Assembly (NCBI RefSeq): GCF_008369195.1
Contig: NZ_VOBC01000001.1
Location: forward strand, 496,001-560,000
Direction of reading: 5' to 3'
From: Sporosarcina sp. ANT_H38
Lineage (GTDB): Bacteria; Bacillota; Bacilli; Bacillales_A; Planococcaceae
DNA length: 64,000 nt
A program made the position numbers and the translations under genes. Shown here one piece after another: positions 14,263 through 35,370 of the stretch. The notes under the pieces were generated by a model. It saw nothing but the letters and a program-made list of their open reading frames with translations, was not told where the DNA came from and searched no databases. Within the stretch, counting starts at the first letter, position 1, and each line of letters starts with the position of its first letter.

Positions 14263-14279
14263 TGGCATAGAAATTGCAT
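14263..14279 (+). promoter_or_regulatory. Sigma-54 (-24/-12) promoter of the catabolic cluster
   Basis: TGGCAT-AGAAA-TTGCAT matches the sigma-54 consensus TGGCAC-N5-TTGCA, with the invariant GG and GC at the right distance. Transcription would start near 14289, about 36 bases before the first coding sequence. The divergent gene encodes a sigma-54 activator. Confidence 0.85.
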
Positions 14280-14324
14280 ATATAAAGAGTGAGACAAAAA
14301 TTTGTTTATCGGGAGTGTGTGCAA

Positions 14325-15854
14325 TTGCGAACGGATTATCAAAGGTATTATTCAGAAAAGGAACGTATCCTGAAAGGCGGTAAAGAAAAATATCACGAAC
14401 AGAACAAGGTAAAAGGAAAAATGTTTGTACGGGAACGGCTAGCAAGAATTTTTGATCCAAACTCAATTGTCGAAGATGGTGTTTTTGCAAACAGTGAAGA
14501 TTCATCACTTCCAGCTGATGGCTGTGTGACAGGAATTGGAGAAGTAAATGGGCGCACAGTTTGTTTTTTAGCCGCAGATTCTACAGTCAAGGCGGGTTCG
14601 TGGGGTCCAAAGTCGGTAGAAAAAAATATTCGTATTCAGGAAAAAGCGGCAGACTTAAAAATTCCGATTTTATACCTGATCGACTCCGCGGGAGCAAGAA
14701 TTACAGAACAATTAAATGTTTTCCCTGGTAAACGCCATGGCGGTAAAATTTTCTATAATCAGATTCAATTGTCAGGAGTTGTTCCGCAAATCACTATTTT
14801 ATTTGGGCCTTCGCCGGCAGGAGCTGCTTATGTTCCTGCATTTTCGGATTTGGTTATTATGATTGATCAAAATTCGAGTGCATACTTAGGTTCTCCGAGA
14901 ATGGTAGAGATGGCAATTGGGGAAAAAACAACGATGGATAAAATGGGCGGTGCAAAAATGCATTGTTCAGTAAGCGGGTTAGGCGATGTACTTGTAGAAA
15001 GTGAGGAAGAGGCAATTGAAGCTTGTAAACGTTATTTAGGATATATGCCTCAAAATTGGCAAGAAACCCCTTCTAAAGAAGATGCGAAAAATCCGATAAG
15101 TGGTAGAAATATAGCAGAAATCATTCCTTTGAATCAAAATACACCATTTGACATGTACGAACTAATTGATCAAGTGATTGACGAGGGTAGTTGGTTTGAG
15201 TATAAAAAATTATTCGCCCCCGAACTAATCACAGGATTTGCACGATTGAATGGGGAGGTTAAAGGAATTATCGCCAACCAATCCAAAGTCAAAGGGGGGA
15301 CATTGTTCGTCGATTCTCCTGATAAGGCAGCACGGTTTATCATGATTTGTAATGCTTATAGTATCCCTTTACTCTACTTGTCCGATGTTCCGGGATACAT
15401 GATCGGTTCAAAAGTAGAACAGAGTGGAATTATTCGGCATGGTGCAAAAATGATTTCAGCGCTATCCGAAGCGACTGTTCCAATTGTATCGGTCATTGTA
15501 CGTAAATGTTATGGTGCCGGGCTTTATGCAATGGCAGGTCCAGCGTTTGGATCAGATGCCGTATTGGCTTTGCCAAGTGCCCAAATTGCTGTGATGGGAC
15601 CTGAAGCAGCAATCAATGCTGTATATTTCAACAAAATCCAAGAAATTCCGGAAGAGGAACGTCCAGCTTTTATAAGCGAAAAAAGAAAGGAGTATACAGA
15701 AGACATCGATATTTTCAAACTTGCTTCGGAGCTGATTATTGATGATTTGGTCGGATTCGATGAAATGAGAACAGAACTGATTCGCCGATTTAATCTATAT
15801 CGAACGAAGAGTGTGACAAAATACGAAAAACGTAACGCGATTCATCCAGTGTGA
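14325..15854 (+). CDS. Acyl-CoA carboxylase carboxyltransferase subunit (beta)
   Basis: This subunit transfers CO2 from carboxybiotin to an acyl-CoA, as in propionyl-, methylcrotonyl- or geranyl-CoA carboxylases. The 509-residue product has both crotonase-like halves: DSAGARITEQ and GPSPAGAAYVPAFSDL in the first, RKCYGAGLYAMAGPAFGSD in the second. The segment MGGAKMHCSVSGLGD resembles methylcrotonyl/geranyl-type subunits rather than PccB. The likely start is TTG 14325, nine bases after GGGAG; GTG 14319 and GTG 14289 are in frame but too near the ribosome binding site or the predicted transcription start. It is the first gene of the cluster; the biotin carrier and biotin carboxylase are encoded downstream. 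Substrate not determined. Confidence 0.9.
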   Translation: MRTDYQRYYSEKERILKGGKEKYHEQNKVKGKMFVRERLARIFDPNSIVEDGVFANSEDSSLPADGCVTGIGEVNGRTVCFLAADSTVKAGSWGPKSVEKNIRIQEKAADLKIPILYLIDSAGARITEQLNVFPGKRHGGKIFYNQIQLSGVVPQITILFGPSPAGAAYVPAFSDLVIMIDQNSSAYLGSPRMVEMAIGEKTTMDKMGGAKMHCSVSGLGDVLVESEEEAIEACKRYLGYMPQNWQETPSKEDAKNPISGRNIAEIIPLNQNTPFDMYELIDQVIDEGSWFEYKKLFAPELITGFARLNGEVKGIIANQSKVKGGTLFVDSPDKAARFIMICNAYSIPLLYLSDVPGYMIGSKVEQSGIIRHGAKMISALSEATVPIVSVIVRKCYGAGLYAMAGPAFGSDAVLALPSAQIAVMGPEAAINAVYFNKIQEIPEEERPAFISEKRKEYTEDIDIFKLASELIIDDLVGFDEMRTELIRRFNLYRTKSVTKYEKRNAIHPV

Positions 15855-15880
15855 TTATTTAGAATGCCGAGGTGATAAAA

Positions 15881-16666
15881 GTGAGCTATGAAACCATATT
15901 GTATGAAGTGACTGATAATATAGCCAAAATTACGATGAATCTTCCTGAGATGAGAAACCCTTTAACGAAGCAGTTAACAAAGGATTTAATAGTTGCTATT
16001 CGAACAGCAGATCAAGATCGAGATGTTCATGCGATTATTTTAACTGGGGCTGGAAAGGTGTTTTCGGCGGGTGGCAATTTAAATGAGTTTAAAGAGAACT
16101 TCGAAAAAGCGGTCCCGCAACTTCATCATGAGGGCAAAGAAAGTACTGAATTGTTTAAGCTGGGAGCAACGGTTAAAACACCTATTATTGCTTCCGTTAA
16201 TGGTCCCGCATTGGGGGGAGGGACAGGGCTCGTAGCAATGTCACATATTGCGATTGCGTCGAATAAGGCCAAACTAGGATTAACTGAGCTGAAACTCGGA
16301 CTTGTACCTTTTGTAATCTTGCCATGGGTAAGACGAGCAGTTGGCGATCGACGCGCTATGGAGCTTATGTTAACGGCTGAAATCATTGATGCGGAAAGAG
16401 CAAAAGACTATGAACTTGTTCATCGGGTAGTACCGCATGAAGAGTTGGAAGAGGAAACGTGGGCTCTAGCAAAAATAGTTGCTTCACACAGTCCTTTAGC
16501 GGTTAATTTAGGCATGGATGCCTATTTTACAACAGAACAAATGGATTTCATGAAGTCATTTGATTATTTATCGACATTGAGGCTTGTGTCTTTTCAAAGT
16601 GAGGATTTGAAAGAAGGCGCATCTGCATTTTTGGAAAAAAGAAAACCAAAATGGCAAGGCAAATAA
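15881..16666 (+). CDS. Enoyl-CoA hydratase family protein, methylglutaconyl-CoA hydratase-like
   Basis: This is a crotonase-fold enzyme of 261 residues. The oxyanion-hole strands are visible in FSAGGNLNEF and NGPALGGGTGL. The first catalytic glutamate of standard hydratases is a glycine here (GGGTGL in place of GGGCEL), while the second is kept in LTELKLGL. This pattern, with LGLVPFVILPWVRRAVG, is like LiuC/AtuE and YngF, which hydrate branched glutaconyl-CoA products of a carboxylase. The GTG at 15881 follows GAGGTGA; an upstream GTG at 15872 is inside that site. The position next to the carboxyltransferase supports hydration of the carboxylated product. Confidence 0.87.
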   Translation: MSYETILYEVTDNIAKITMNLPEMRNPLTKQLTKDLIVAIRTADQDRDVHAIILTGAGKVFSAGGNLNEFKENFEKAVPQLHHEGKESTELFKLGATVKTPIIASVNGPALGGGTGLVAMSHIAIASNKAKLGLTELKLGLVPFVILPWVRRAVGDRRAMELMLTAEIIDAERAKDYELVHRVVPHEELEEETWALAKIVASHSPLAVNLGMDAYFTTEQMDFMKSFDYLSTLRLVSFQSEDLKEGASAFLEKRKPKWQGK

Positions 16667-16677
16667 AGGAGGAAAAA

Positions 16678-16890
16678 ATGATGGAAATTCAATCGCCAAT
16701 GAGTGGTAGTATATGGAAAGTTGAAGTTCGTGAAGGGGATACAGTAGCAGCAGGGGATATCGTCATGATTTTAGAATCGATGAAAATGGAAATTCCGATT
16801 GAGGTAACAGATGCAGGGATGGTAAAGGAAATAAAGGTGGCAGAAGGAGATTTTGTACAAGAAGGGGATTCAGTTGTAGTAATTGGATAA
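16678..16890 (+). CDS. Biotin carboxyl carrier protein (biotin/lipoyl attachment domain)
   Basis: This 70-residue stand-alone carrier swings biotin between the carboxylase and carboxyltransferase subunits. The biotinylated lysine is in ESMKMEI, flanked by the usual hairpin (PMSGSIWKVEVREGD and EGDFVQEGDSVVVIG). It corresponds in size to the short YngHB-type carriers and is too short for a fatty-acid AccB. AAAGGAGG precedes ATG 16678 and ATG 16681; either could be used. It lies 11 bases after the hydratase gene. Confidence 0.93.
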   Translation: MMEIQSPMSGSIWKVEVREGDTVAAGDIVMILESMKMEIPIEVTDAGMVKEIKVAEGDFVQEGDSVVVIG

Positions 16891-16910
16891 TAGCAGAAAG
16901 AAGGTTTGAC

Positions 16911-18290
16911 ATGATGAAGAAAATTCGAATTGGTGCTGCACAAGGTTTTTATGGTGATACCATCGAACCTGCTATTGCGACTGCTAAATACGGCAATGTC
17001 GATTATATTAGTTTTGATTGTTTAGCAGAATTGACAATGGCAATTTTGCTGAAGGACAAACAAAAAGACGACAATCTTGGTTATACCAGGGACATTACAA
17101 CGTCAATGAAAGCCTTGCTTCCTTATGTGAAGGAGAAGGGCATTAAACTGTTGACTAATGCAGGGGGCATTAACCCAGTTGCTGCTCAGCAAGAGGTTAT
17201 TCGTGTAGCTAAAGAGTTGGGAATGGATGATTTAAAAGTGGCGGTTGTCACAGGTGATAATTTAATTGATCAAATCGATGACCTTATTGCACAGGGAGTT
17301 TCATTTAATCATATGGAAACAGGTGCATCCATTGATAGTGTGAAAGAGAAACTGAAGTTTGCGAATGCTTATCTCGGCTCTATGCCAATTGTTGAGGCGC
17401 TGAAACAGGGGGCGGATGTGGTAGTGACGGGTAGAACTACAGATACGGCGCAGTTTCTTGCCCCTTTAATTTATGAATATGGTTGGTCAGTAGAAGATTG
17501 GAATCAGCTCGCGAGTGGGGTTTTCATGGGGCATCTTTTGGAATGCTCGGCCCAGTCGACAGGCGGTAACTTCAGTGGCGATTGGGAGCAGGTTGAACGA
17601 GTAGAGGAAATTGGTTATCCCATTGCTGAAGTGGACGCGTCTGGTGAATTCATTATAACAAAAGTGGGTGAGCGTGGCGGTCTAGTAAGTGTTGACACTG
17701 TTAAAGAACAAATGCTGTATGAAATACATGACCCATCTGCTTATATTACGCCAGACGTCATTGTCGATTTGACGCAAGTCAAACTGGAGAATGTTGGGGA
17801 GCATCATGTGAAGGTTAGCGGCGTTAAAGGCAAACCGAAGCCTGACCAATTAAAGGTTGTGATGGGCTATGAGGATGGTTATATGGGGCAAGTTCTTATG
17901 GGATTCTCATGGCCGGATGCGCTGAAAAAAGCGAGGAAAGCGGATGAAGTCATTCGTAAGCAAATCGAGCAAAAGGGCTTGCTTTATAAGGAAATTCATA
18001 CGAGCTATCTAGGCTATGATTCTTTACACGGTCCACTTGCTAAGGAGCCGAGTGAGGACTTGAATGAGGTCTATTTACGGATGGCGGTTAGGTCGAAAAC
18101 GAAGCAAGACGCTGCACAATTAGGCCGTTTGTTTCCTCCCTTGTTTTTGAATGGTCCGCCAGCAGCAGGTGGCTTCTATGGTAATATCCCAACCAGACAG
18201 CTCCTTGGCATGTGGTCGGCACTTATTCCGAGAGAAATTGTAGAAAGCCAAGTGAAGATTCGTGTGGAAGAGGTGGGAACATATGTCTAA
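16911..18290 (+). CDS. AtuA family protein (DUF1446), large part
   Basis: This 459-residue protein belongs to the acyclic terpene utilization AtuA family. It begins KKIRIGAAQGFYGDTIEPA and carries conserved stretches such as NAGGINPVAAQQE, VVTGRTTDTAQFLAPL and AQSTGGNFSGDW. No biochemical activity is firmly established for AtuA. The C-terminal ferredoxin-like part found in full-length AtuA is a separate gene here (18283-18615), overlapping this one by 8 bp. It sits inside a carboxylase cluster that lacks an HMG-CoA lyase, so a role in cleaving or processing the carboxylated and hydrated intermediate is an attractive but unproven idea. Confidence 0.88.
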   Translation: MMKKIRIGAAQGFYGDTIEPAIATAKYGNVDYISFDCLAELTMAILLKDKQKDDNLGYTRDITTSMKALLPYVKEKGIKLLTNAGGINPVAAQQEVIRVAKELGMDDLKVAVVTGDNLIDQIDDLIAQGVSFNHMETGASIDSVKEKLKFANAYLGSMPIVEALKQGADVVVTGRTTDTAQFLAPLIYEYGWSVEDWNQLASGVFMGHLLECSAQSTGGNFSGDWEQVERVEEIGYPIAEVDASGEFIITKVGERGGLVSVDTVKEQMLYEIHDPSAYITPDVIVDLTQVKLENVGEHHVKVSGVKGKPKPDQLKVVMGYEDGYMGQVLMGFSWPDALKKARKADEVIRKQIEQKGLLYKEIHTSYLGYDSLHGPLAKEPSEDLNEVYLRMAVRSKTKQDAAQLGRLFPPLFLNGPPAAGGFYGNIPTRQLLGMWSALIPREIVESQVKIRVEEVGTYV

Positions 18291-18615
18291 CGTTTTGTTG
18301 AAGGACATGGCACAAGTGCGATCTGGGGATAAAGGAAATACGGTGAATATCGGTTTATTTGCTGCTAATGAAGACATGTACAAGCTCTTTGCAAAACAAG
18401 TGACGGCTGATAAAGTGAAAGCGCATTTTCAGGGCTTAGTCGATGGAGAAGTAATCCGTTACGAAGTGCCAACGATTCATGCTTTTAATTTCATCTTAAA
18501 AGATGCTTTGAACGGCGGAGGTTCAACGTCGATTCGAGTAGATAATCTGGGGAAATGTTTTGGTGCAAACTTACTGCGAATGGAAATTGAAGTGCCAGAA
18601 GAGGTGGGGGTGTGA
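18283..18615 (+). CDS. AtuA-related small protein (C-terminal AtuA domain as separate gene)
   Basis: The 110-residue product corresponds to the C-terminal domain of AtuA proteins: LKDMAQVRSGDKGNTVNIG near the start and ALNGGGSTSIRVDNLGKCFG near the end. The first motif looks like a binding loop. The ATG at 18283 overlaps the 3' end of the AtuA gene by 8 bp, so the two are probably translationally coupled and work as a two-chain version of a protein that is one chain elsewhere. An upstream in-frame ATG at 18262 lies deeper in the AtuA gene and lacks a better ribosome binding site. Confidence 0.83.
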   Translation: MSNVLLKDMAQVRSGDKGNTVNIGLFAANEDMYKLFAKQVTADKVKAHFQGLVDGEVIRYEVPTIHAFNFILKDALNGGGSTSIRVDNLGKCFGANLLRMEIEVPEEVGV

Positions 18616-18617
18616 GT

Positions 18618-19766
18618 ATGGCATACGAACCTTACTTTACAGAAGAGCATGAAGAATTGCGTAAAACAATTCGCAAATTTGTCAGCAAAGAGGTTGTTCC
18701 CTTTGTAGAAGAATGGGAAGAGGCAGGAATCTTTCCAATGGAATTGTTAAAGCGAATGGGTGATTTAGGTTTTCTTGGTTTACGCTATTCGGAAGAAGTT
18801 GGTGGCCAGGGTGGCGATTATTTTACAAGCATTATCTTTGCGGAAGAGCTTGCAAAATGTGGCTGTGGAGGAGTACCGATGGCGATTGCTGTTCAAACAG
18901 ATATGGCAACACCGCCCATCGCTGAATTTGGTAATGCCGAACAAAAGGAACGTTTTCTGACGCCAGCCATAAAAGGAGATAAGCTGGCTGCGATTGGCAT
19001 TAGTGAGCCGAACCACGGTTCTGATGTTGCCTCTGTTGAAACAAGAGCGCGTAGAGACGGTGATGATTGGATTATCGATGGTTCAAAAATGTTTATCACA
19101 AATGGGACACGCGCAGATTTCGTCACGCTTGTCACGCGAACGTCAGACGAACCGGGTTACAAAGGAATCAGTCTATTTATAGTGGAACTCGATAGCCCAG
19201 GTGTGTCAGTTAGTCGGAAGTTGGACAAAGTTGGTATGCGTTCCTCTGATACAGCTGAGCTGATATTCGATAATGTACGAGTGCCACATGCTAATTTACT
19301 TGGTGAAGAGGGCAAAGGGTTTTCTTATATTATGTGGGAGTTGCAAGGGGAGCGCATGATCGCTGCCGCCGGCTCCATTGGAATGGCGGAGCAAGCCTAT
19401 GAGCTAGCCTATGACTATGCCAAATCGAGAAAACAATTCAATCAGCCAATTGCAAATTTCCAAGTGATTGCTCATTTGCTTGCGGAGATGAAAACAGAAA
19501 TCGAAGTGTGTAGGGAATTGACGTATGCAACGGCCTATCGTTTTTCAAAAGGCGAAGTACCGAGTAAAGAAATTTCGATGACTAAGCTTGCAGCTGCACA
19601 AATGGCTCATTGGGTAGCAGACCGTGCGCTCCAAATCTTCGGTGGTAATGGCTATATGATGGAATATCCAATTCAACGTATTTGGCGTGATACGAGGCTA
19701 TATCGCATTGGTGGCGGAGCAGATGAAGTGATGAAGGAAATCATCGCCAAACAAATGGGCTTGTGA
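18618..19766 (+). CDS. Acyl-CoA dehydrogenase (isovaleryl/long-chain type), first copy
   Basis: This 382-residue FAD enzyme forms an alpha,beta double bond in an acyl-CoA and passes electrons to ETF. Visible signatures are GISEPNHGSDVAS, a FITNGT strand, RKQFNQPIANFQ and GGNGYMMEYPIQRIWRD. The C-terminal catalytic Glu of medium-chain enzymes (YEGT) is replaced by IGGGA; a glutamate in GERMIAA sits where isovaleryl- and long-chain enzymes keep their base. This favours branched or long acyl substrates. GTG 18612 overlaps the previous stop, but ATG 18618, eight bases after GGTGGGGG, is more likely. It forms a pair with the next gene. Confidence 0.92.
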   Translation: MAYEPYFTEEHEELRKTIRKFVSKEVVPFVEEWEEAGIFPMELLKRMGDLGFLGLRYSEEVGGQGGDYFTSIIFAEELAKCGCGGVPMAIAVQTDMATPPIAEFGNAEQKERFLTPAIKGDKLAAIGISEPNHGSDVASVETRARRDGDDWIIDGSKMFITNGTRADFVTLVTRTSDEPGYKGISLFIVELDSPGVSVSRKLDKVGMRSSDTAELIFDNVRVPHANLLGEEGKGFSYIMWELQGERMIAAAGSIGMAEQAYELAYDYAKSRKQFNQPIANFQVIAHLLAEMKTEIEVCRELTYATAYRFSKGEVPSKEISMTKLAAAQMAHWVADRALQIFGGNGYMMEYPIQRIWRDTRLYRIGGGADEVMKEIIAKQMGL

Positions 19767-19789: not shown

Positions 19790-20944
19790 ATGACCCACTG
19801 GATGTTTACTGAAGAGCATAACATGTTTCGGAATTCAGTTAAGAAATTTGTGGAAAAAGAAATCACCCCATTTGTTGAAGAGTGGGAAGAAGCAGGAGAA
19901 GTTCCAAGAAGCGTGTTTGAGAGAGTGGGAGAGTTAGGGTATTTGGGGACGAAATTTCCGGTCGAATACGGTGGTGCAGGATCCGATCTGATTATGGATG
20001 CTATTTTCAATGAGGAACTCACCAAATGTGGATCGGGTGGAATTGGTGCTTCGATTGTTGCGCATATCGGCATTGCACTGACTCCGATTTGGCGTTTTGG
20101 CAATCATGAGCAGAAGCTAAAATACCTGCAGCCTGGCGTTGAAGGAAAAAAGATTGCCGCATTAGGCATTACGGAACCAAATGCAGGTAGTGATGTTTCT
20201 TCGATTGGCACGAAGGCAGTCGATAAGGGCGATCATTATTTGTTAAATGGCTCAAAAACCTTTATTACAAATGGTGTGAACGCTGATTATGTCGTTGTTG
20301 CTGCAAAAACGGCTGATGGTTCTGGGCATCGAAACATGAGTCTGTTCATTGTAGAAAGTACTTGGGAGGGGTTTTCTGTTGGTAAGAAACTCGACAAGTT
20401 AGGGTGGCGGGGGTCTGATACAGGCGAGTTGTACTTTGAAAATGTAAAAGTGCCTAAGGAGAATTTGATTGGACGCCTAAATGAAGGATTCAAGTATATT
20501 ATGATCAATTTTCAATGGGAACGATTGACATTAGCCCTTTCAAGTATTGCATTGGCCGAAAAGGCATTGGAGGACACGGTGCGTTACAGTAAAGAACGCA
20601 TCCAATTCGGAGGTCCACTGGCTCAATTCCAAGTGCTTCGGCACAAAATGGTTGATATGGCCATTGACATTGAAAAGGCAAGAAGTATTACCTATCGGAC
20701 GGTTTATCGCTATGACAAAGGCCAAGATGTCACAACAGAAGCGACGATGGCTAAAGCCTATGCCGCGGAAATGGTGAGCAGAGTATGTGACCAAGCCCTT
20801 CAAATCCACGGTGGCAATGGTTATATGATGGAATATCCTGTTCAACGTTATTGGCGTGATGCACGTCTTCAATCGATTGGCGGAGGAACGACGCAAATTA
20901 TGAATGAGATACTCACGAAAAGACTGCAAATCATTGAAAACTAA
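19790..20944 (+). CDS. Acyl-CoA dehydrogenase (isovaleryl/long-chain type), second copy
   Basis: The 384-residue product is a paralogue of the preceding dehydrogenase, sharing the N-terminal EEWEEAG region and the GGNGYMMEYPVQRYWRD block. FAD and substrate motifs are GITEPNAGSDVSS and RIQFGGPLAQFQ. The likely catalytic base is the glutamate in WERLTLA; the medium-chain position is SIGGGT. Two dehydrogenases in a row suggest either two different acyl chains or two oxidation rounds. ATG 19790 follows AGGAAGTG. ETF genes are not in the cluster, so general ETF is presumably used. Confidence 0.92.
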   Translation: MTHWMFTEEHNMFRNSVKKFVEKEITPFVEEWEEAGEVPRSVFERVGELGYLGTKFPVEYGGAGSDLIMDAIFNEELTKCGSGGIGASIVAHIGIALTPIWRFGNHEQKLKYLQPGVEGKKIAALGITEPNAGSDVSSIGTKAVDKGDHYLLNGSKTFITNGVNADYVVVAAKTADGSGHRNMSLFIVESTWEGFSVGKKLDKLGWRGSDTGELYFENVKVPKENLIGRLNEGFKYIMINFQWERLTLALSSIALAEKALEDTVRYSKERIQFGGPLAQFQVLRHKMVDMAIDIEKARSITYRTVYRYDKGQDVTTEATMAKAYAAEMVSRVCDQALQIHGGNGYMMEYPVQRYWRDARLQSIGGGTTQIMNEILTKRLQIIEN

Positions 20945-20963
20945 TGTGGTGGAGGCAATGACA

Positions 20964-22526
20964 ATGAGAGAAGAAATTTCAGTGATTAATCGCGTTGCAA
21001 TTGGTGATATCATCCGCAGAGCGGCAGGTCGCTATGAGAATAAGACGGCGCTTGTGGAAGGGGAACAGAAGCTGACGTATCGAGAGCTTGACCAAGCCTG
21101 TAACCGCTTTGCAAATTACTTGATTGGAAGCGGTTATAAAAAAGGAGATGGCATTGCGACGATATGTGGCAACTCGATTGACCATGTAATTGCAATGTAC
21201 GGCATTCAAAAAGCAGGTCTAATTTGGGTGCCGGTAAATCCAGGACTTTCGAGTGTGGAGCAACAATATATTTTAAACAAAGCAGATGTGAAAGTAATCA
21301 TTATCGATCATGCTTTTTTGCAAGCAGATCGTTCTCGCTTTGATAGTTCGACAATTATTATTGTGAACAACATAGAGGGAGAGGCTGGAAAGTCTTTTAC
21401 TGAAACACTCGTTGGGCAATCTCATGAAGAGCCAGATGTCGACATTCATGACCGTGATGTCGCACAAATTATGTTTACCAGTGGCACTACGGGCAATCCA
21501 AAAGGGGTTTGTATTAGCCATTTAACTGTTTATCTTGCGAGTTTAGGAAATATTGCTGACCTGCTTATTAAGGAAAGTGAAGTACTACTAGTCATTATGC
21601 CAATGTTCCATTGTGCGCAGCATTCATTTAACACCTCCTTCTTATCCATTGGTGCCAAGCTCGTGGTGGCGAAAAAATTTGAACCTGAGAATTTTATGCA
21701 AACGATTGAAAGGGAACAAGGAACATTTATATTCGCGTTACCTATGATGTATCGAGCGATAATTCATCATCCAAATCGGAAAAATTATAATTTGACATCG
21801 TTACAAACTTGTTTGTATGCCATGGCACCTATGGATCAAACGACATTGAAAAAAGGGATCGCAGAGCTAGAGGCTGACTTTTTACTTGGAACAGGGCAAA
21901 CGGAAATGTATCCCGCGACGATGTTCTTTAAATCAGAAGAGCAACTGAAACGCTTTGGTTCTTATTGGGGAACGACCGCGATTATCAATGACACGGCTGT
22001 AATGGACGACGAGGGTAATCTATTGGGAAAAGGTCAAATTGGGGAAATTGTCCACCGTGGCCCAAATGTGATGAATGGCTACCTAGATAATGAGGAAGCG
22101 ACAAAGGAAACACGGTTATTTGGTTGGCATCATACAGGGGATTTAGGCTATTGGGATGAAGACGGGCAAATGGTGTTTGTAGATCGGAAAAAAGACATGA
22201 TTAAAACTGGCGGCGAAAATGTGGCTTCCATTAAAATTGAGCAAATGCTCTTAAACCACGAAAAGATTGAAAATGCCATCGTTGTCGGCCTGCCGCATGA
22301 AAAGTGGATTGAAGCCGTAACGGCCATTGTTCGTCCGAAAACGGGACAAGAGGTGACGGAGGACGAAATTATTGCTTATTGTAAAGAGAATCTGGGCGGT
22401 TTCCAAGTGCCGAAAAAAGTAATATTCGTAGATGAATTTCCGATGACCACGACAGGTAAAATTCAAAAGCAAAAACTACGTGTACAGTATGAAAGCTTAT
22501 TTGAAGATGTAACGAGTATGCACTGA
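20964..22526 (+). CDS. AMP-dependent acyl-CoA ligase 1
   Basis: This 520-residue adenylate-forming enzyme couples a carboxylic acid to CoA with ATP. The P-loop is FTSGTTGNPKGV, the A8-type hinge is HHTGDLGYWDEDG...DRKKDMIKTGGENV, and the catalytic lysine is in TTGKIQKQKL. The ATG at 20964 lies eight bases after GGTGGAGG; the ATG at 20958 is too close. It belongs to the CaiC/FadK-like group by overall pattern; the acid cannot be read from the sequence. It is the first of five ligases in the cluster. Confidence 0.92.
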   Translation: MREEISVINRVAIGDIIRRAAGRYENKTALVEGEQKLTYRELDQACNRFANYLIGSGYKKGDGIATICGNSIDHVIAMYGIQKAGLIWVPVNPGLSSVEQQYILNKADVKVIIIDHAFLQADRSRFDSSTIIIVNNIEGEAGKSFTETLVGQSHEEPDVDIHDRDVAQIMFTSGTTGNPKGVCISHLTVYLASLGNIADLLIKESEVLLVIMPMFHCAQHSFNTSFLSIGAKLVVAKKFEPENFMQTIEREQGTFIFALPMMYRAIIHHPNRKNYNLTSLQTCLYAMAPMDQTTLKKGIAELEADFLLGTGQTEMYPATMFFKSEEQLKRFGSYWGTTAIINDTAVMDDEGNLLGKGQIGEIVHRGPNVMNGYLDNEEATKETRLFGWHHTGDLGYWDEDGQMVFVDRKKDMIKTGGENVASIKIEQMLLNHEKIENAIVVGLPHEKWIEAVTAIVRPKTGQEVTEDEIIAYCKENLGGFQVPKKVIFVDEFPMTTTGKIQKQKLRVQYESLFEDVTSMH

Positions 22527-22553
22527 CACTAAAAAATGAGGAGTGTTCGATTT

Positions 22554-24101: not shown

Positions 24102-24539
24102 ATGTTTAATAAAAAATTTGACCACTTCGAAGTCGGTGAAACGTGGCGTTCGAGAGGGCGCACCATTACGGAGGCAGATATTGTCATGTTTTCTGCATTT
24201 AGTGGAGACTGGTACCCGCTTCATACAGATAAAGAGTATGCGGAAAACAACACACCGTTTAAGCAAAGAATTGCCCATGGCATGCTTGTGTTATCGGTAG
24301 CTACTGGACTGCAAGTGATGGAACCAGAAGTCATTGTTGCATTTTATGGCATTGAACATCTACGATTTATTCGCCCAACCTTCATCAATGACACGATACA
24401 TGTGGAATTGGAGGTCACTGATTTACTAGACAAAGGAAATGGCACGGGTGTGGTAACAGCTATTCAAAAAGTTGTGAAACAAACAGGTGAACCCGTGACG
24501 ACAGGCGTATTAAAAATACTCATCAATAAAGAGCAATAA
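24102..24539 (+). CDS. MaoC-like (R)-specific hydratase
   Basis: This 145-residue hot-dog-fold enzyme probably adds water to an enoyl-CoA. The hydratase motif is visible as FSGDWYPLHTD (about residues 47-57), with Asp and His as the catalytic pair, followed by RIAHGMLVLSVATGL. A second hot-dog strand set is EHLRFIRPTFINDT. The ATG at 24102 follows AAAGGGGG. In this cluster it would be a third hydratase beside two crotonase-fold proteins, which suggests a differently configured or different-length intermediate. Confidence 0.88.
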   Translation: MFNKKFDHFEVGETWRSRGRTITEADIVMFSAFSGDWYPLHTDKEYAENNTPFKQRIAHGMLVLSVATGLQVMEPEVIVAFYGIEHLRFIRPTFINDTIHVELEVTDLLDKGNGTGVVTAIQKVVKQTGEPVTTGVLKILINKEQ

Positions 24540-24565: not shown

Positions 24566-25348
24566 ATGGTCAATACAACAGAGACGTACGACTGGCAGCT
24601 GATTGTCAATCAGCTGTATACCTATTTACGCTTAAAAACAGTTCCGGTTGGTATGAAAATGTTCGAGAAAGCAGAGGACATGGAAGCAATCCCGAAGATC
24701 AGACGGCCACAATCGGTACACACGGCTGATCAGATTGTGGCACAAGCAGCTAGGCTGGGCTGGACCGTGGGCATAACTGAAGAAGATTTGGTGATGCCGC
24801 AGTGTAGTGCGGTTCTTGGCTTACATCCCCGTGATGAACAATGGTTAGATGGGAAGGAAATGGCAGGGATTTGGTTTGAAAACCAGAAGGATTCTGCTGC
24901 TCATCAGTCGGCGATGACTGTCAATCCTTATGGGAGGCATGCAGCAATGGCTGTTTCACCTCTTGTCTCGAATCGACTAAGTCCTCCAGATATTTGTTTG
25001 ATTTACGCAACACCGGGACAGATGATTTTGCTCATTAACGGCCTACAGTGGAAGGATTATAAAAAACTCGAGTGGGGAGTTGTCGGCGAGTCTTCCTGTG
25101 CGGACTCTTGGGGACGGGCGCTTGCAACGGGTGAACCGAGCTTGTCGATTCCTTGTTATGCGGAAAGGCGATATGGTGGTGTCTTGGATGATGAAATGCT
25201 AATGGCGTTAGCGCCGGCTGATCTAGTGAAGGCCCTCGAAGGCGTAGAGAAGTTAAGTCGAAATGGCTTGCGTTACCCAATTCCTCAGTATGGCATTCAA
25301 ATGGATGCGCGTAGTGGGTTGGAAGCTAGTTACGGCAAACGCAGTTGA
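24566..25348 (+). CDS. DUF169 domain-containing protein
   Basis: The 260-residue product fits the DUF169 family, whose function is not known. The N-terminal helix region (LIVNQLYTYLRLKTVPVGMK) is typical, followed by cysteines in MPQCSAVLGLH, GESSCADSWG and SIPCYAERRYGG, which could bind a metal or cofactor. No membrane segment or signal peptide is seen. The ATG at 24566 follows AGAGGTGG. Its place in the middle of a CoA-ester cluster suggests a catalytic or cofactor role in the pathway, but that is only context. Confidence 0.8.
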   Translation: MVNTTETYDWQLIVNQLYTYLRLKTVPVGMKMFEKAEDMEAIPKIRRPQSVHTADQIVAQAARLGWTVGITEEDLVMPQCSAVLGLHPRDEQWLDGKEMAGIWFENQKDSAAHQSAMTVNPYGRHAAMAVSPLVSNRLSPPDICLIYATPGQMILLINGLQWKDYKKLEWGVVGESSCADSWGRALATGEPSLSIPCYAERRYGGVLDDEMLMALAPADLVKALEGVEKLSRNGLRYPIPQYGIQMDARSGLEASYGKRS

Positions 25349-27774: not shown

Positions 27775-29130
27775 ATGTTTACTAAAATATTGATTGCCAA
27801 TCGAGGAGAAATTGCAGCAAGAATCATTCGAACATGTAAGGAAATGGGGATTGCAACGGTTGCGATTTATTCGGAGGCAGATGCGGAGGCCCTTCATGTC
27901 CAAGCTGCTGATGAAGCCTATTTAATTGGACCGCCACGTGTCAACGAGAGTTATCTAAACATCGATAAGATTATTGAAGTGGCGCAAGCTTCTGGGGCCG
28001 AAGCGGTTCATCCGGGCTATGGTTTACTATCGGAAAACGCGGATTTTGTGAAGCGTTGTCAAGAGGTTGGACTCGTTTTCATAGGACCTGAAACGGAAGC
28101 AATCGCAAAAATGGGCAGTAAAATTGAAGCGCGAAAGTTAATGAAAGCAGCGGGTGTTCCGATTGTTCTGGGTATTGACTATCCGTTACAAGACACGGAG
28201 GAAGCAATTATGGTTGCTAACGACATCGGCTATCCCGTCATGTTAAAAGCCTCTGCAGGTGGAGGGGGCATAGGTATACAAATTGTAAACGACAGTGAGG
28301 AATTGAGGAAAGCCTTCGCGGGCAATCAAAAAAGGGCGACCGACTATTTTGGTGATGGTGCCATGTTTATAGAAAAGTATGTAGCAAATCCAAGACATAT
28401 TGAAATTCAAATACTTGCTGACAATCAGCACAATACCGTGTACCTATGGGAACGAGAATGTTCGATTCAACGCCGCCATCAAAAAATTCTGGAAGAAGCG
28501 CCATCTCCATTTTTAGACGAAGAAACGCGCATAAAAATGGGAGAAGTAGCTGTAAAAGCAGCCAAATCAATCGGATACATCAACGCGGGGACGATTGAAT
28601 TTTTAGTAGATGAAGAAAAGAATTTCTACTTTCTTGAGATGAATACAAGATTGCAAGTAGAACACCCAATCACAGAGGAAATAACGGGGATAGATTTGGT
28701 TAAAGAACAACTAAACATTGCATTCGGTAAAAAGCTGTCATTTCTTCAATCGGATATTGCTAGAAGTGGTCATGCAATTGAAGTGAGAATCTATGCGGAA
28801 GATCCAAAAACATTTTTTCCATCTCCAGGTAAAATCACAAAAATGACATTACCAAGTGGAGATAATATCCGTCATGAACTTGCTGTAAACGAACAATCAA
28901 CGGTTACTCCGTTTTATGACCCGATGATTGCTAAATTAATCGTAAAAGGCCATACAAGAGAACAAGCAATTGAAGAAATGAAACAAGCTCTTGATTACTA
29001 TGTGGTGGAAGGCATTAAAACAAATATTCCCATGTTGAAAAATATTATTGCGCATGAAGCTTTTTTGAATGGTGATACAACTACCAACTTTGTGGCACAG
29101 CATTTGCAAGCCAAATCCTTAACGTTATAA
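27775..29130 (+). CDS. Biotin carboxylase subunit (AccC-like) of the acyl-CoA carboxylase
   Basis: This 451-residue ATP-grasp enzyme carboxylates biotin on the carrier protein. It shows KILIANRGEIAARIIRT at the start, the ATP loop KASAGGGGIGIQ, ECSIQRRHQKILEEAPS, EMNTRLQVEHPITEE, and a C-terminal B3-type domain. It completes a three-gene carboxylase with the carboxyltransferase (14325) and carrier (16678), although eleven genes separate it from the carrier. ATG 27775 follows GAAAGGGG. The length matches stand-alone AccC; a housekeeping AccC for fatty acid synthesis would normally sit next to accB, so this is judged a catabolic paralogue. Confidence 0.93.
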   Translation: MFTKILIANRGEIAARIIRTCKEMGIATVAIYSEADAEALHVQAADEAYLIGPPRVNESYLNIDKIIEVAQASGAEAVHPGYGLLSENADFVKRCQEVGLVFIGPETEAIAKMGSKIEARKLMKAAGVPIVLGIDYPLQDTEEAIMVANDIGYPVMLKASAGGGGIGIQIVNDSEELRKAFAGNQKRATDYFGDGAMFIEKYVANPRHIEIQILADNQHNTVYLWERECSIQRRHQKILEEAPSPFLDEETRIKMGEVAVKAAKSIGYINAGTIEFLVDEEKNFYFLEMNTRLQVEHPITEEITGIDLVKEQLNIAFGKKLSFLQSDIARSGHAIEVRIYAEDPKTFFPSPGKITKMTLPSGDNIRHELAVNEQSTVTPFYDPMIAKLIVKGHTREQAIEEMKQALDYYVVEGIKTNIPMLKNIIAHEAFLNGDTTTNFVAQHLQAKSLTL

Positions 29131-29152
29131 AAAAATGGGGAGGGGTTCGAAG

Positions 29153-29533
29153 ATGTCTATTTCCGATAAGATTATCTACACATTTCTATTGCTCGTTAGC
29201 GTAACACTTATTGGGATGCTTACGGGTTCATGGCGCATAATTCTTTATCCTTATTTAGTCGTTATCGGTATCGCTATTTTGGCGGGATTAGTGAAAAATG
29301 TGAAAAGAAATCCTCGTAAAATATGGATTCCAGCATCTGTTTCACTTGCCTATATCATTTTATATAGCTGGCTCGATATGATCACGATTGATTCACCAAC
29401 AGGAGGAACTTCGTATATTTTAGGGCTAACCCCAAGCATGGCCATCTATTTATTAGGTATTTGGCCATTAGCTAATCTCATTTGTTTACTTTACGCATGG
29501 ACCTTTACTTACGAGGAATCAGTTCATAATTAA
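29153..29533 (+). CDS. Small four-helix membrane protein, likely partner of the downstream symporter
   Basis: The 126-residue product has four predicted membrane helices and little else; I do not recognise the family. Its position directly upstream of a sodium:solute symporter recalls the small partner subunits (DUF3311-type, DUF485-type) of such transporters, but it is larger than those. The ATG at 29153 follows GGGGAGGGG. It is separated from the symporter by 100 bases that hold a short tandem repeat and a hairpin. Confidence 0.7.
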   Translation: MSISDKIIYTFLLLVSVTLIGMLTGSWRIILYPYLVVIGIAILAGLVKNVKRNPRKIWIPASVSLAYIILYSWLDMITIDSPTGGTSYILGLTPSMAIYLLGIWPLANLICLLYAWTFTYEESVHN

Positions 29534-29632: not shown

Positions 29633-31099
29633 ATGAGCGGTACGATTATTACGATTGTCATCATCTATCTACTTATTTGTATTTTAATCGGTGTATGGGC
29701 AACGGGGAAAACGAAGACAACAAGTGATTTTTTAATAGCTGGTAAAAGTCTAGGTATGTTTGTTATGGCTATTGCTGCATTCTCTTCCATTCAAAGCGGT
29801 TTTGGCATGTTGGGCGGGACGGGATTAACGTTTTCTGGAGGCATGGGGTTTTTAGCTGGCGTTGGAATTGCCGCCCCTTTAGGTTTTGCACTAACTTGGT
29901 TTTTAGTTGGGAAAAGAATGTGGAAGATTGGTCAACTAGGTGAAATATACACACTTGGAGATGTGGTCGAGAAAAGATACAACAGTAAGGCTGTAAGGGG
30001 ATGGATTGGACTAGCCGTTACGCTTGGTGTTATTGGCTATCTAGGTACACAGGTCCAAGCCATGGGCATTATTATGCATACGGTTTTTGGTGTTTCTCCA
30101 AAGATAGGAGCACTTATTGGACTTGCAATACTCGGATTTTACTGCGTTGGTGGTGGAGTTATTGCGGGTGTATATACGGATTTATTCCAAGGGATCATTA
30201 TGGTTACGGTTTCCGTTGTGATTTTCTTCATGGCGCTGAATATTGGTGGCGGTGTTCAGAATATCACGGAGAGTTTACAAAGTGCTGATCCACTTATGGC
30301 TTCGCCATTTGGAACTTACTCCATACTATCCATTGCCTGTTGGATCTTTTTGTTTAGTTTAGGTGCGGCTGGACAGCCCCATTTTATCACGAAATTTTTA
30401 ATGATAAAAGATCAGAAGCAATTGAAATGGGGAGCATTTACCGCTGGGTTTGCGTACACATTGAGCACTCTATTAGTGATTGGTATCGGCTTAACTGCTA
30501 GATCTCTTTATATAAAAGGGGAATTTCCAGAACTAGCCTCACCAGATGAAGCATTGACTGTATTTATTACACATTTTACATCCCCAATTATTGGCGGTTT
30601 AGTCATTGCGGGATTGCTTGCGGCTATTATGTCTACGGGCTCAAGCTTTGTGACGCTTGGTGCTTCAGGGTTAACTAGGGATATTCCGAAAGCTTTTAAT
30701 ATGAAAGTGAAAAATGAATTGCTTTGGAATCGAATAGCTGTCGTAGGTTTGCTTGTACTTTCTACGCTATTTTCATTTTATATGGATACATTGGTAGCCC
30801 TACTTGGGGTTTTTGGTTGGGGAACTTTTGCATCCGCAGTCTTTCCAGCCGTTGTACTCGGGCTCATTTGGGAAAAGGCGACGAAGTATGGAGCGATTTC
30901 AAGTATCATTATTGGCCTAGGCTTGAATTTTGCATTAGAGATTGGCGGAAAATATGGTGTGGTCATACTTCCACCAGGAGTTATTGTGGGAGCTGTTGCA
31001 TTTGCGATTTCAATTATTGTCTTCATTGTCGTTTCGTTGCTAACGCAAAAGTCGATTGTCCAACTCGACGAAGAGATGCTCGATGCGATGGAGGGCTAA
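29633..31099 (+). CDS. Sodium:solute symporter family transporter
   Basis: The 488-residue membrane protein of the SSS (PutP/PanF) family has about thirteen helices. Typical features are TTSDFLIAGKSLG after the first helix, GGVIAGVYTDLFQGIIM around helix 5, and AIMSTGSSFVTLGASGL near helix 8, the sodium-site region. It probably brings the carboxylic acid substrate of the cluster into the cell with sodium. The ATG at 29633 follows GGGGTGGGG. Placement between the carboxylase and ligase genes supports uptake of the pathway substrate; the exact solute is not readable. Confidence 0.9.
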   Translation: MSGTIITIVIIYLLICILIGVWATGKTKTTSDFLIAGKSLGMFVMAIAAFSSIQSGFGMLGGTGLTFSGGMGFLAGVGIAAPLGFALTWFLVGKRMWKIGQLGEIYTLGDVVEKRYNSKAVRGWIGLAVTLGVIGYLGTQVQAMGIIMHTVFGVSPKIGALIGLAILGFYCVGGGVIAGVYTDLFQGIIMVTVSVVIFFMALNIGGGVQNITESLQSADPLMASPFGTYSILSIACWIFLFSLGAAGQPHFITKFLMIKDQKQLKWGAFTAGFAYTLSTLLVIGIGLTARSLYIKGEFPELASPDEALTVFITHFTSPIIGGLVIAGLLAAIMSTGSSFVTLGASGLTRDIPKAFNMKVKNELLWNRIAVVGLLVLSTLFSFYMDTLVALLGVFGWGTFASAVFPAVVLGLIWEKATKYGAISSIIIGLGLNFALEIGGKYGVVILPPGVIVGAVAFAISIIVFIVVSLLTQKSIVQLDEEMLDAMEG

Positions 31100-32674: not shown

Positions 32675-32730
32675 GGCGTTTTATGTTACCAGTTCTTTAG
32701 CACGATAAAATCCGAGAAAGGGTGGAGAGA

Positions 32731-34269
32731 TTGTTCCTTATCAATCAATTATTAGATCATCATGCGAAACATTTACCGGAAAAAGCGTATTTATTTACGA
32801 ATAACGATCGATTGACCTACCGTGATGTGCACGCCCGCGTCAATGCTTTGGCCCTTTCATTTTGTTCGCTTGGTATTCAGAAGGGAGATAGAATTGCTTT
32901 ATATCTTCAAAATCGCCCTGAATTTATCTACGCCTGGTTTGCGTTAAATCGGATTGGCGCAGTGATGGTGCCGATCAACACTGCTTTAGTAGAAAAAGAA
33001 GTGTCCTATATTCTAAATGACAGCGCTGTAATTGGGGTGATAGGCGAGGATCAGGAAATTGAGCATATTTTAGATCCAGCTATTGCGCAATGTGATTCGA
33101 TTCGATTTTGTATAACGACTGGGATAGCCAGAAACGGTTGGATGTCCATGGATAGTTTACTAGAGAATGAAGGATTCATTCGCTATGAAATACCGAATGA
33201 CGAGGATCTAGCTTCGATACTATATACGTCGGGTACAACCGGAAATCCAAAAGGGGTCATGTGCCCGCATAGGTATTATATACACCTGGCTCAGTCCGCA
33301 AAAAAAGCTTTGGAGCTCACTGAAAAAGACAGGCTGTTAACATGTTTGCCTCTATTTCATATGAACGCTCAAGTACTGACGGTTACGACATCACTTTTAT
33401 CAGAATCTAGTATTGTGCTATTAGACAAGTTTAAACCCACTACATTTTGGCAGCAAGTAGCCGACTATCAGGCAACGGTTTTCTATTATTTGGGTTCCAT
33501 TCTACCTTTACTATCAAAATTAACTGAGACAGAGGAAGAGATGAAGAATACACTTCGATTAGCTGTAGGTGCACAAGCAGACCCGGAAAGAATTGTGGAA
33601 TATGAAACAAGATGGAAGCTGGAAATGATTGAATTATACGGAATGACAGAGGGTGGAGGTACGGTAAATCATGTGGGGAACCGCAGGGGTGGTTCCAGTG
33701 GAACAGCCTTTGAAAATCATGAAATCATGATCGTAGACGAAATGGGAAATCCTTTGCCAGCGCTACAAGCAGGTGAAATAATCTTTACAGGTCCATCCTT
33801 AACACTTGGTTACTGGAACAACATTGCTGAAACGCAAAAGGCCTATCGTGATGGTTGGTTGTATTCTGGAGATATTGGTTATATGGATGAGGATGGTTTT
33901 TTGTACTTTTTAGATCGAAAAAATGATATCATTCGACGAAATGGAGAAAATATATCTTCGGCTGAGATTGAAAGGGTTTTAATGGCGCATCCGAAAATTC
34001 TGGAGGTAGCAGCCATTTCGGTTCCAGATGACTTACGTGGTGAAGAAGTAAAAGTGTATGTCGTTGTGAAAACAGGTGAACGTATCCAAGCAGAAGAAAT
34101 CATAGAATGGTGCGAGTCTGTAATGGCAAAGTATAAAATTCCGCGTTTCATCGAATTTCGGGCAAGCTTGCCGAAGACAGCGACTCAAAAAATCCAAAAA
34201 TCCGTTTTGAAAAATGAAATAAGTGATTCGAGTTCGACTGTTTGGGAACGCAGAACAATTAGTGCTTAA
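32731..34269 (+). CDS. AMP-dependent acyl-CoA ligase 5 (CaiC-like)
   Basis: The ligase is about 512 residues, with the P-loop YTSGTTGNPKGVMCPH, the motif ELYGMTEGGGTVNHVG, and the hinge DRKNDIIRRNGENISSAEIE. In the lysine motif the usual Gly before Lys is Gln (TATQKIQK), with the lysine kept; the hinge RRNGENIS is like crotonobetaine/carnitine-type ligases. The start is uncertain: TTG 32731 follows GGTGGAG, while the in-frame GTG 32722 lies inside that site. It is the last ligase of the cluster, 152 bases before the flavoprotein gene. Confidence 0.9.
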   Translation: MFLINQLLDHHAKHLPEKAYLFTNNDRLTYRDVHARVNALALSFCSLGIQKGDRIALYLQNRPEFIYAWFALNRIGAVMVPINTALVEKEVSYILNDSAVIGVIGEDQEIEHILDPAIAQCDSIRFCITTGIARNGWMSMDSLLENEGFIRYEIPNDEDLASILYTSGTTGNPKGVMCPHRYYIHLAQSAKKALELTEKDRLLTCLPLFHMNAQVLTVTTSLLSESSIVLLDKFKPTTFWQQVADYQATVFYYLGSILPLLSKLTETEEEMKNTLRLAVGAQADPERIVEYETRWKLEMIELYGMTEGGGTVNHVGNRRGGSSGTAFENHEIMIVDEMGNPLPALQAGEIIFTGPSLTLGYWNNIAETQKAYRDGWLYSGDIGYMDEDGFLYFLDRKNDIIRRNGENISSAEIERVLMAHPKILEVAAISVPDDLRGEEVKVYVVVKTGERIQAEEIIEWCESVMAKYKIPRFIEFRASLPKTATQKIQKSVLKNEISDSSSTVWERRTISA

Positions 34270-34421
34270 AGTCGTATGGAAATCTTTAGCACAAATTGTG
34301 TCAGGGCAAGTGAAATGAAAATAGTGTTAGCCGTTTCTCGTAGCGAAACACCGTTCTGTAACAGTCGGTGTAGCGATTATATTTAGTCGCGGTGGGTAAG
34401 GAATTGGGAGGGGGATTGTAC

Positions 34422-35336
34422 ATGTTGAAATTGCCAGTTATCGTTGCACCGATGTTTTTAGTATCGACGCCTAACATGGTCATAGAAGCAGGAAAAGCAG
34501 GTGTCATTGGTTCGTTACCTCTATTAAATGCTCGTCCAGTCGAGCAATGTGCAGAATGGCTTCAAGAAGTGAAGGATGGATTGGGCAATCGACCTTGGGC
34601 AGTGAATTTTATCTGCCATAAAAAAACAAATAGTCGATATCAGGAGGATTTGATATTAATTCGAGACTATCAACCTCCGATTGTGATTACTTCACTTGGT
34701 CATCCAGGAGAAGTACTCGAAATCGTTCACGCATACGGAGGGCTCGTCTATTCGGATGTAGCTACTGTCAAACATGCTGAAAAGGCGGCGGCAACTGGGG
34801 TGGATGGCTTGATTTTAGTTTGTACGGGGGCAGGGGGACATGGTGGGAGCTTAAATCCGTTCGCTTTTATTGCAGCGGTAAAACAATTTTACGAAGGCAC
34901 GATTATTTTATCGGGTTCGATTTCCAATGGTGCGGACGTGGTCGCCGCCCGAATAATGGGTGCTGATTATGCATTCATGGGTACGCGCTTCTTAGCGGCA
35001 GACGAAAGCCATGCATCGGAAGCCTATAAGCAAATGGTGCTCGACGCAACAATTGAAGATATTTTGTACACAGATTCCTTTAGTGGGGTACATGCAAATT
35101 TATTGATTCCGAGTATCGTGAAAGAGGGCATTGATCCTACGACACTCAAATCAAAAGAAGAAGTGGATTTTTCACATTTGGTTAGCGTTAAGGCTTGGCG
35201 TGACATTTGGTCGGCAGGGCAAGGGGTAACGACTGTTACTAAACGGGAAACGACAAAGGAAATTGTCGAAACGCTGGTGAAAGAATATGCGGAAGCCTTG
35301 CATACGTTTGTTGAGATAAAGATCACGAATAGGTAA
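34422..35336 (+). CDS. Nitronate monooxygenase-like FMN protein
   Basis: The 304-residue TIM-barrel flavoprotein is of the nitronate monooxygenase/FabK group. Visible parts are PVIVAPMFLVSTPNMV at the start, AGKAGVIGSLP, the FMN/substrate loop TGAGGHGGSLNPFAF, and SGSISNGADVVAARIMGAD. The family oxidises alkyl nitronates but also includes enoyl reductases, so an alternative role in the pathway is possible. The ATG at 34422 follows GGGAGGGGG. It is the last gene of the cluster, closed by the terminator at 35341. Confidence 0.86.
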   Translation: MLKLPVIVAPMFLVSTPNMVIEAGKAGVIGSLPLLNARPVEQCAEWLQEVKDGLGNRPWAVNFICHKKTNSRYQEDLILIRDYQPPIVITSLGHPGEVLEIVHAYGGLVYSDVATVKHAEKAAATGVDGLILVCTGAGGHGGSLNPFAFIAAVKQFYEGTIILSGSISNGADVVAARIMGADYAFMGTRFLAADESHASEAYKQMVLDATIEDILYTDSFSGVHANLLIPSIVKEGIDPTTLKSKEEVDFSHLVSVKAWRDIWSAGQGVTTVTKRETTKEIVETLVKEYAEALHTFVEIKITNR

Positions 35337-35340
35337 GTGT

Positions 35341-35370
35341 AAGAGCGTCCATCCGGGCGTTCTTTTTATT
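35341..35370 (+). terminator. Terminator of the catabolic cluster
   Basis: A ten-pair stem (AAGAGCGTCC with GGGCGTTCTT, two G-U pairs) around ATCC is followed by TTTTTATTTT. It lies five bases after the last stop codon of the cluster. Confidence 0.85.

What the first reader, a model, noticed from the sequence alone, without database searches (positions are those of the whole stretch)
14263..35370. A 19-gene sigma-54-controlled acyl-CoA carboxylase cluster with AtuA but without a lyase
One promoter and one terminator bracket a full three-part biotin carboxylase, a split AtuA, two branched/long-chain acyl-CoA dehydrogenases, a LiuC/AtuE-like and a standard crotonase, MaoC, five CoA ligases, DUF169, a sodium symporter and a nitronate-monooxygenase-like protein. 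The gene set matches the logic of the liu (leucine) and atu (acyclic terpene) pathways: activate, desaturate, carboxylate, hydrate. However, HMG-CoA lyase, thiolase and short-chain dehydrogenase are absent, and AtuA and DUF169 have no known reaction. The cluster may be a new catabolic route for an isoprenoid or branched acid in a Gram-positive spore-former, with AtuA and its small partner standing in for the missing lyase. The substrate is not known.
Basis: partly seen in the sequence, partly recalled or inferred. Interest (0 to 1): 0.8.

Follow-up and report, generated by a model that had tools for sequence, protein, structure and literature searches.

The report
Branched-acid operon with AtuA-type lyase
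A bacterium carries a long gene set that looks built to break down branched organic acids, in which a little-understood protein pair (AtuA and its small partner) probably cuts the carbon chain and releases acetate, a job for which the usual lyase gene is missing from the set.

The parts
11901..14039 (-). Sigma-54 activator (CBS pair, PAS pair, AAA+ with GAFTGA loop, Fis-type HTH), divergent
   Evidence: Pfam Sigma54_activat 224 bits, CBS, PAS, HTH_8; GAFTGA seen in sequence (meaning of the motif recalled); homologues upstream of related clusters
14262..14278 (+). -24/-12 sigma-54 promoter GTGGCATAGAAATTGCA
   Evidence: score 15/17 against a recalled consensus; similar sites in related loci
14319..15854 (+). 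Carboxyltransferase (beta) subunit of a biotin acyl-CoA carboxylase (ORF 14289-15854)
   Evidence: Pfam Carboxyl_trans 488 bits; sister to HMGL-linked clade
15872..16666 (+). ECH1, crotonase; proposed 3-alkylglutaconyl-CoA hydratase
   Evidence: Pfam ECH_1; ECH within 600 bp upstream of AtuA in 28 of 30 long-type loci, two duplicate pairs included; no NCBIfam model over its cut-off (best 25 shown)
16651..16890 (+). BCCP, biotin carboxyl carrier
   Evidence: Pfam Biotin_lipoyl, ESMKME
16911..18290 (+). AtuA large subunit; proposed acetate-releasing C-C lyase
18262..18615 (+). Small AtuA partner (ferredoxin-like), proposed lyase subunit
   Evidence: PF23544 96.7 bits; beside AtuA in 102 of 109 loci; remote match to the DUF4387 partner of the CmlA type
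18612..19766 (+). ACAD1, acyl-CoA dehydrogenase with IVD/LCAD-type base placement
   Evidence: Pfam; GGG near the C-terminus and ER in helix G (the rule is recalled)
19790..20944 (+). ACAD2, same type
20904..22526 (+). ACS1, AMP-forming acyl-CoA ligase
22536..24089 (+). ACS2, AMP-forming acyl-CoA ligase
24102..24539 (+). MaoC-like hydratase
24566..25348 (+). DUF169 protein, function unknown
   Evidence: no fold match; also near AtuA in L042, L086/L087 and L107
25374..26150 (+). ECH2, crotonase (ORF from 25263; likely start 25374)
26175..27734 (+). ACS3, AMP-forming acyl-CoA ligase
27775..29130 (+). Biotin carboxylase subunit
   Evidence: NCBIfam NF006367 652 bits over cut-off 597
29135..29533 (+). 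132-aa protein beside the symporter, hydrophobic by eye
   Evidence: no Pfam match; next to SSS in G050, G034, G087
29633..31099 (+). Sodium:solute symporter (SSS), possible substrate uptake
   Evidence: Pfam SSF 152 bits
31121..32674 (+). ACS4, AMP-forming acyl-CoA ligase
32722..34269 (+). ACS5, AMP-forming ligase; CaiC/PRK06155-type models score high but under their cut-offs
34392..35336 (+). NMO/FabK-like flavoprotein
   Evidence: Pfam NMO 94 bits
35341..35364 (+). Intrinsic terminator
   Evidence: 10-pair stem, T tail

Best explanation
The cluster is a sigma-54-switched catabolic operon for a beta-branched carboxylic acid. The acid is activated to a CoA ester, desaturated by the two IVD/LCAD-type dehydrogenases, carboxylated at the branch by the BC/BCCP/CT enzyme, hydrated by ECH1 to a 3-hydroxy-3-alkylglutaryl-CoA, and then cut by AtuA plus its small partner. 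The cut is a retro-aldol one between the tertiary carbinol and the carboxymethyl arm, giving a 3-oxoacyl-CoA and free acetate, unlike HMG-CoA lyase, which gives acetyl-CoA. Thiolases encoded elsewhere finish the work. Shown by computation: gene content, promoter type, predicted fold of AtuA, conserved gene neighbours. Inferred: every reaction, the order of steps, the substrate class, uptake by the symporter. Unknown: the exact substrate and the roles of DUF169, NMO, MaoC, ECH2 and the surplus ligases.
Against: No enzyme assay of this AtuA, or of any with a 3-alkylglutaryl-CoA, was found in the searches made. A sequence search with AtuA alone found no PDB chain; only the profile and the model did. 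One review gives the corresponding terpene-pathway step to LiuE (PMC4097962, passage). The genome holds two HMG-CoA lyases, and 17 of the 20 genomes with a strong AtuA hit, own included, have one somewhere, so a lyase in trans is possible. The exclusion is not significant by Fisher's test (p 0.19), as most carboxyltransferases have neither neighbour. One AtuA of the citrate-symporter type (G011) has an HMG-CoA lyase within 12 kb (1 of 21). The window AtuA is 18% identical to the citramalate lyase subunit, and the ADP in that structure is unexplained. The symporter and BC are seldom near AtuA in other long-type loci (0 and 3 of 28).
Confidence: 0.7

Rival explanations
1. A chromosomal HMG-CoA lyase acts in trans on the pathway intermediate, as LiuE is said to do in Pseudomonas, and AtuA does something else, such as isomerisation or thioester transfer.
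For: Two HMG-CoA lyase genes over cut-off at C1:1997515 and C1:2471779; a review assigns the step to liuE.
Against: AtuA's only full-length structural match among those found is a lyase; the ThnQ/ThnS report; 0 of 12 searched genomes with AtuA-CitMHS operons have an HMG-CoA lyase over cut-off, though all 12 have weaker family hits.
Confidence: 0.15
2. It is a second leucine/isovalerate route: a methylcrotonyl-CoA carboxylase paralogue with AtuA making acetoacetyl-CoA and acetate.
For: CT is sister to HMGL-linked enzymes of Bacilli, about 60-62% identical; IVD-type dehydrogenases.
Against: The genome already has a similar ECH, BC, BCCP, CT set near C1:2203428 and HMG-CoA lyase elsewhere; five ligases and two dehydrogenases are more than isovalerate needs.
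Confidence: 0.2
3. Two modules are fused in one operon: an AtuA branched-acid core (first half) and a general carboxylate uptake/activation module (symporter, ACS4, ACS5, NMO) for other acids.
For: In G034 no DUF169, BC, ACS5 or NMO was found in the stretches fetched, and in G001 (contig cut) BC lies on the far side of the activator and DUF169 is absent between MaoC and ACS3, while the CT-to-ACS1 core is kept; around 28 long-type loci SSS is seen in 0 and NMO-like in 3; a hairpin lies between HP132 and SSS.
Against: G050 keeps all 19 genes in order; G034 keeps HP132, SSS and ACS4, and G087 has HP132, SSS and ACS4 homologues near its AtuA cluster. The fetched flanks cut off the far part of many loci.
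Confidence: 0.35

Closest known systems
atu pathway of Pseudomonas (AtuABCDEFGH, AtuR)
   Same: AtuA, biotin acyl-CoA carboxylase, hydratase, acyl-CoA dehydrogenase, ligase in one cluster; no HMG-CoA lyase gene among atuA-H (names from PMC4847356)
   Different: AtuA and its small domain in two genes here (the 615-aa Thauera AtuA suggests a fusion there, not tested), three-subunit carboxylase, sigma-54 activator instead of TetR-type AtuR, no alcohol/aldehyde dehydrogenases, symporter and five ligases
liu/yng-type leucine operon of Bacilli (e.g. L194, L200; the names are recalled)
   Same: BC, BCCP, ECH and a closely related CT
   Different: AtuA + small partner where these have HMG-CoA lyase
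Citramalate lyase CmlA (PDB 9erq/9evf); CmlA-type genes with a DUF4387-type partner in Bacilli
   Same: whole fold of the large subunit; a roughly 110-aa partner gene next to it
   Different: 18% identity; partner is PF23544, only remotely related to DUF4387; ATP/ADP use untested
ThnQ/ThnS of anaerobic naphthalene degraders
   Same: two-gene AtuA-like lyase acting on a tertiary 3-hydroxyacyl-CoA (as reported in PMC12016498)
   Different: cyclic substrate, no biotin carboxylase in the operon table of that review; sequences not compared here

Membership tests
AtuA family (PF07287) | profile match over cut-off | tested here: met
   501.7 bits vs cut-off 22.8
AtuA family (PF07287) | AtuA ferredoxin-like domain, fused or as partner | tested here: met
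   18262-18615, 96.7 bits vs 27
atu pathway | geranyl-CoA-specific carboxylase | tested here: inconclusive
   by bits the CT is nearer PCC-type (357) than MCC (282) or GCC (228) PDB chains, yet sister to HMGL-linked CTs
atu pathway | AtuE/LiuC-type hydratase | tested here: inconclusive
   PRK05674 gamma-carboxygeranoyl-CoA hydratase model 135.9 bits, cut-off 426; position beside AtuA conserved
atu pathway | AtuB/AtuG dehydrogenases and AtuR-type (TetR) regulator | tested here: not met
   no SDR or TetR family among the 19 genes and the divergent regulator
liu operon | HMG-CoA lyase in the operon | tested here: not met
   the two NF004283 matches over cut-off lie about 1.5 and 1.9 Mb away on the same contig
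Citramalate lyase CmlA/CmlB | CmlA fold | tested here: met
Citramalate lyase CmlA/CmlB | close sequence kinship to CmlA and a DUF4387-type partner | tested here: not met
   18% identity; partner is PF23544; the CmlA-type relative L030 scores 412 bits to 9erq
Sigma-54-dependent operon | activator with sigma-54 domain and -24/-12 site | tested here: met
   (sequence only)
C-C lyase of tertiary 3-hydroxyacyl-CoA | activity | not testable with these tools
   needs an assay

The most novel reading that the evidence does not exclude
AtuA with its small partner, CmlA with a DUF4387-type partner, and ThnQ/ThnS form one superfamily of two-subunit lyases that release acetate, or another free carboxylate arm, from tertiary hydroxy acids, free or as CoA esters, with a carbon-carbon cut unlike that of HMG-CoA lyase. 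The window holds a branched-acid version coupled to a carboxylase. The Snodgrassella operon symporter-AtuA-partner-CoA-transferase-thiolase would then be the unannotated 3-hydroxy-3-methylglutarate route, giving acetate and acetoacetate.
Probability: 0.6. Interest if true: 0.75.

Novelty: new variant of a known kind. Interest (0 to 1): 0.6.

Why it matters
AtuA has long lacked a firm reaction in terpene catabolism: papers seen here name either AtuA (speculated) or LiuE as the lyase. The combination of fold, neighbours and the honey-bee symbiont's metabolism turns this into a cheap test with two proteins and a few substrates. It would also give a function to AtuA operons seen here in Bacillota, Pseudomonadota, Campylobacterota MAGs and haloarchaeal plasmids, and could explain how Snodgrassella uses host-made 3-hydroxy-3-methylglutarate.

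Tried and rejected

Caveats on counts: the 109 AtuA loci are a convenience sample from three searches (relatives, a spread of plasmid hits of which I fetched 16 of 60 listed, and genome contigs); 2 pairs have identical AtuA (107 distinct), and L046 and L109 are the same contig. L041 was left out as it overlaps L042. The 7 loci of 109 without an adjacent partner call were L083, L075, L140, L070, L056, L077 and L146; in L083, L075, L077 and L070 the record annotates a small gene right after AtuA, so some misses come from my ORF filter. HMG-CoA lyase was sought in the loci by BLAST with two own-genome queries; the one hit was a partial 30% match in L151. ORFs were called by script, not by a gene finder. 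In one search, 39 loci were tried, with mononucleotide shuffles: 5 had no activator upstream (L107, L037, L103, L104, L105), 22 were carboxylase-type and 12 citrate-symporter-type. One search used the 21 strong AtuA matches only, and HMG-CoA-lyase matches to E 1e-50, a few of them below cut-off.
Full report
What is there. The window lies in a 4.63 Mb genome. Its genus is probably Sporosarcina: the same-genus genome G001 holds a contig identical to the record titled Sporosarcina sp. P32b (L046 = L109). Gaps are small except 99 bp before the symporter and 122 bp before the last gene. A divergent sigma-54 activator with CBS and PAS matches lies at 11901-14039. The site GTGGCATAGAAATTGCA at 14262-14278 fits the -24/-12 consensus (15 of 17). 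In the 22 carboxylase-type loci with the activator upstream the best site scored 14 to 17, reached by at most 3% of 200 mononucleotide shuffles in each; the two weakest were L084 and L097 (14), and the L097 site lies inside the called gene start. The 12 citrate-symporter-type loci were mixed: 15-17 in L045, L049, L117, L136, L139 and L144, but 12-14 in L044, L047, L048, L050, L052 and L137, of which only L052 was beaten by fewer than 5% of shuffles. A 10-pair terminator follows the last gene. Whether all 19 genes share one transcript is not shown.

How conserved it is. AtuA (PF07287) occurs in 23 of 101 genomes searched, own included, at E <= 0.001, 22 over the cut-off. Within the same genus the type seen here is in the window genome, G001, G034 (C3, and a rearranged relative on C1) and G050; G004, G011, G016, G023, G032 and G051 instead have activator-AtuA-partner-CitMHS. 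G050 keeps all 19 genes in order (its NMO is in L066). G034 C3 has no DUF169, BC, ACS5 or NMO call in the stretches fetched; G001 has BC on the far side of the activator and is cut by its contig end. Across 107 distinct AtuA loci, 28 have CT, ECH, ACAD and ACS near AtuA. Around those 28, BC is seen in 3, NMO-like in 3, DUF169 in 2, HP132 in 1 and SSS in 0, with flanks of limited length. So a core of CT, ECH, AtuA, partner, ACADs and ACS is recurrent, and the second half of the window's operon is not.

Where the carboxylase belongs. PDB chains rank PCC-type first by bits (357), then MCC (282) and GCC (228). Within Bacilli the picture is sharper: the genome's other CT (C1:2203428, 62%) belongs to a type with matches at E <= 1e-120 in 83 of 101 genomes, a count that includes matches of the window type. 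In a FastTree with the genome's 37% paralogue as outgroup, the window CT and its AtuA-linked relatives form a clade (0.98) sister to a clade (0.99) holding the 8 CTs I fetched from beside HMG-CoA lyase and the genome's other CT; other AtuA-linked CTs fall in three further lineages, one of them proteobacterial (L071, L077; L077 has an MCC chain as best PDB match). Of the 8 HMG-CoA-lyase clusters, 6 read BC-BCCP-HMGL-ECH-CT; L195 lacks the ECH before CT and L198 shows only CT and HMGL. I read this as repeated coupling of AtuA to branch-carboxylating enzymes.

The dehydrogenases. Both have glycines where MCAD has its C-terminal catalytic glutamate, and a Glu-Arg in the helix where isovaleryl-CoA and long-chain dehydrogenases carry theirs (the rule is recalled). 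This favours beta-branched substrates.

Literature. A 2025 review (PMC12016498; [quoted passage not shown] The CoA stays on the 3-oxo part, which is the regiochemistry I propose. PMC9973270 and PMC4847356 (passages) call AtuA a speculated or tentatively identified acetate lyase; PMC4097962 (passages) gives the step to liuE.

Neighbours as witnesses. AtuA's partner is adjacent in 102 of 109 loci. In 17 of 107 distinct loci a citrate-type symporter, a CoA-transferase subunit and a thiolase lie with AtuA; in Snodgrassella L119 these pass the cut-offs of citMHS, acetate CoA-transferase alpha and 3-oxoacid CoA-transferase A and B, and acetyl-CoA C-acyltransferase. In 5 loci of Clostridia (L136, L137, L139, L140, L144) a 284-285 aa gene follows that is of the acetoacetate-decarboxylase family where tested (L137, 74 bits over 29.8). 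In the archaeon Salinigranum AtuA follows a degradative HMG-CoA reductase, and 3 Advenella loci have one about 8 kb away on the other strand. These fit a 3-oxo product or an HMG-type substrate. [quoted passage not shown] passages). They also report that it did not support growth as a sole carbon source but sped growth with citrate. None of 12 genomes with AtuA-CitMHS loci, 3 of them Snodgrassella, has an HMG-CoA lyase over cut-off; all 12 have weaker family hits, in ORFs of 342-1169 aa.

Other AtuA contexts fit less clearly: AtuA with tripartite, TRAP or ABC transporters and no CoA enzymes nearby (e.g. L078, L079, L081, L082). These suggest that some members act on free acids, and they do not test the lyase idea.

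Exclusion test. Of 100 CT matches in 101 genomes, 24 have HMG-CoA lyase within 6 kb, 8 have AtuA within 12 kb (a ninth, in G087, lies just beyond and was counted as neither), none has both, 68 have neither. This is in the expected direction but not significant (p 0.19). The genome itself holds HMG-CoA lyases at C1:1997515, beside a thiolase, and C1:2471779, in a CaiB/TRAP cluster (neighbours named by reading and by later BLAST), so a dispersed leucine route probably exists and leucine is an unlikely sole substrate here.

Verdict. Which branched acid is degraded is open, and terpenes are only one option.

Noticed in passing
L119:8607-14316 (Snodgrassella alvi) and like loci L114, L115, L118, L121, L123-L129, L131-L133, L138, L156: CitMHS-AtuA-partner-CoA-transferase-thiolase operon, a candidate for the unannotated 3-hydroxy-3-methylglutarate route of the bee symbiont; several hosts are insect-associated by name.
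   Followed up: partly
L044, L045, L047, L048, L050, L052 (same genus): A second, minimal AtuA operon: sigma-54 activator, AtuA, small partner, citrate-type symporter.
   Followed up: partly
L188, L189, L190, L191, L193: CmlA-type AtuA relatives with a DUF4387-type partner; candidate citramalate lyases in Bacilli.
   Followed up: partly
L136, L137, L139, L140, L144: Acetoacetate-decarboxylase-family gene (family tested on L137) after the AtuA pair in Clostridia.
   Followed up: partly
L070:6730-9347: Degradative HMG-CoA reductase directly before AtuA on a haloarchaeal plasmid.
   Followed up: no
L078, L079, L081, L082: AtuA pairs with tripartite or ABC transporters and no CoA enzymes in the annotated vicinity.
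   Followed up: no
L007:4562-11524: HMG-CoA-lyase-like gene in what reads as a CoA-transferase, TRAP transporter and GntR cluster elsewhere in the window's genome.
   Followed up: no
window 24566-25348; L042, L086, L107: DUF169 recurs near AtuA in a few Bacilli but has no fold match in the PDB; weak thiolase-fold rows are at noise level.
   Followed up: yes
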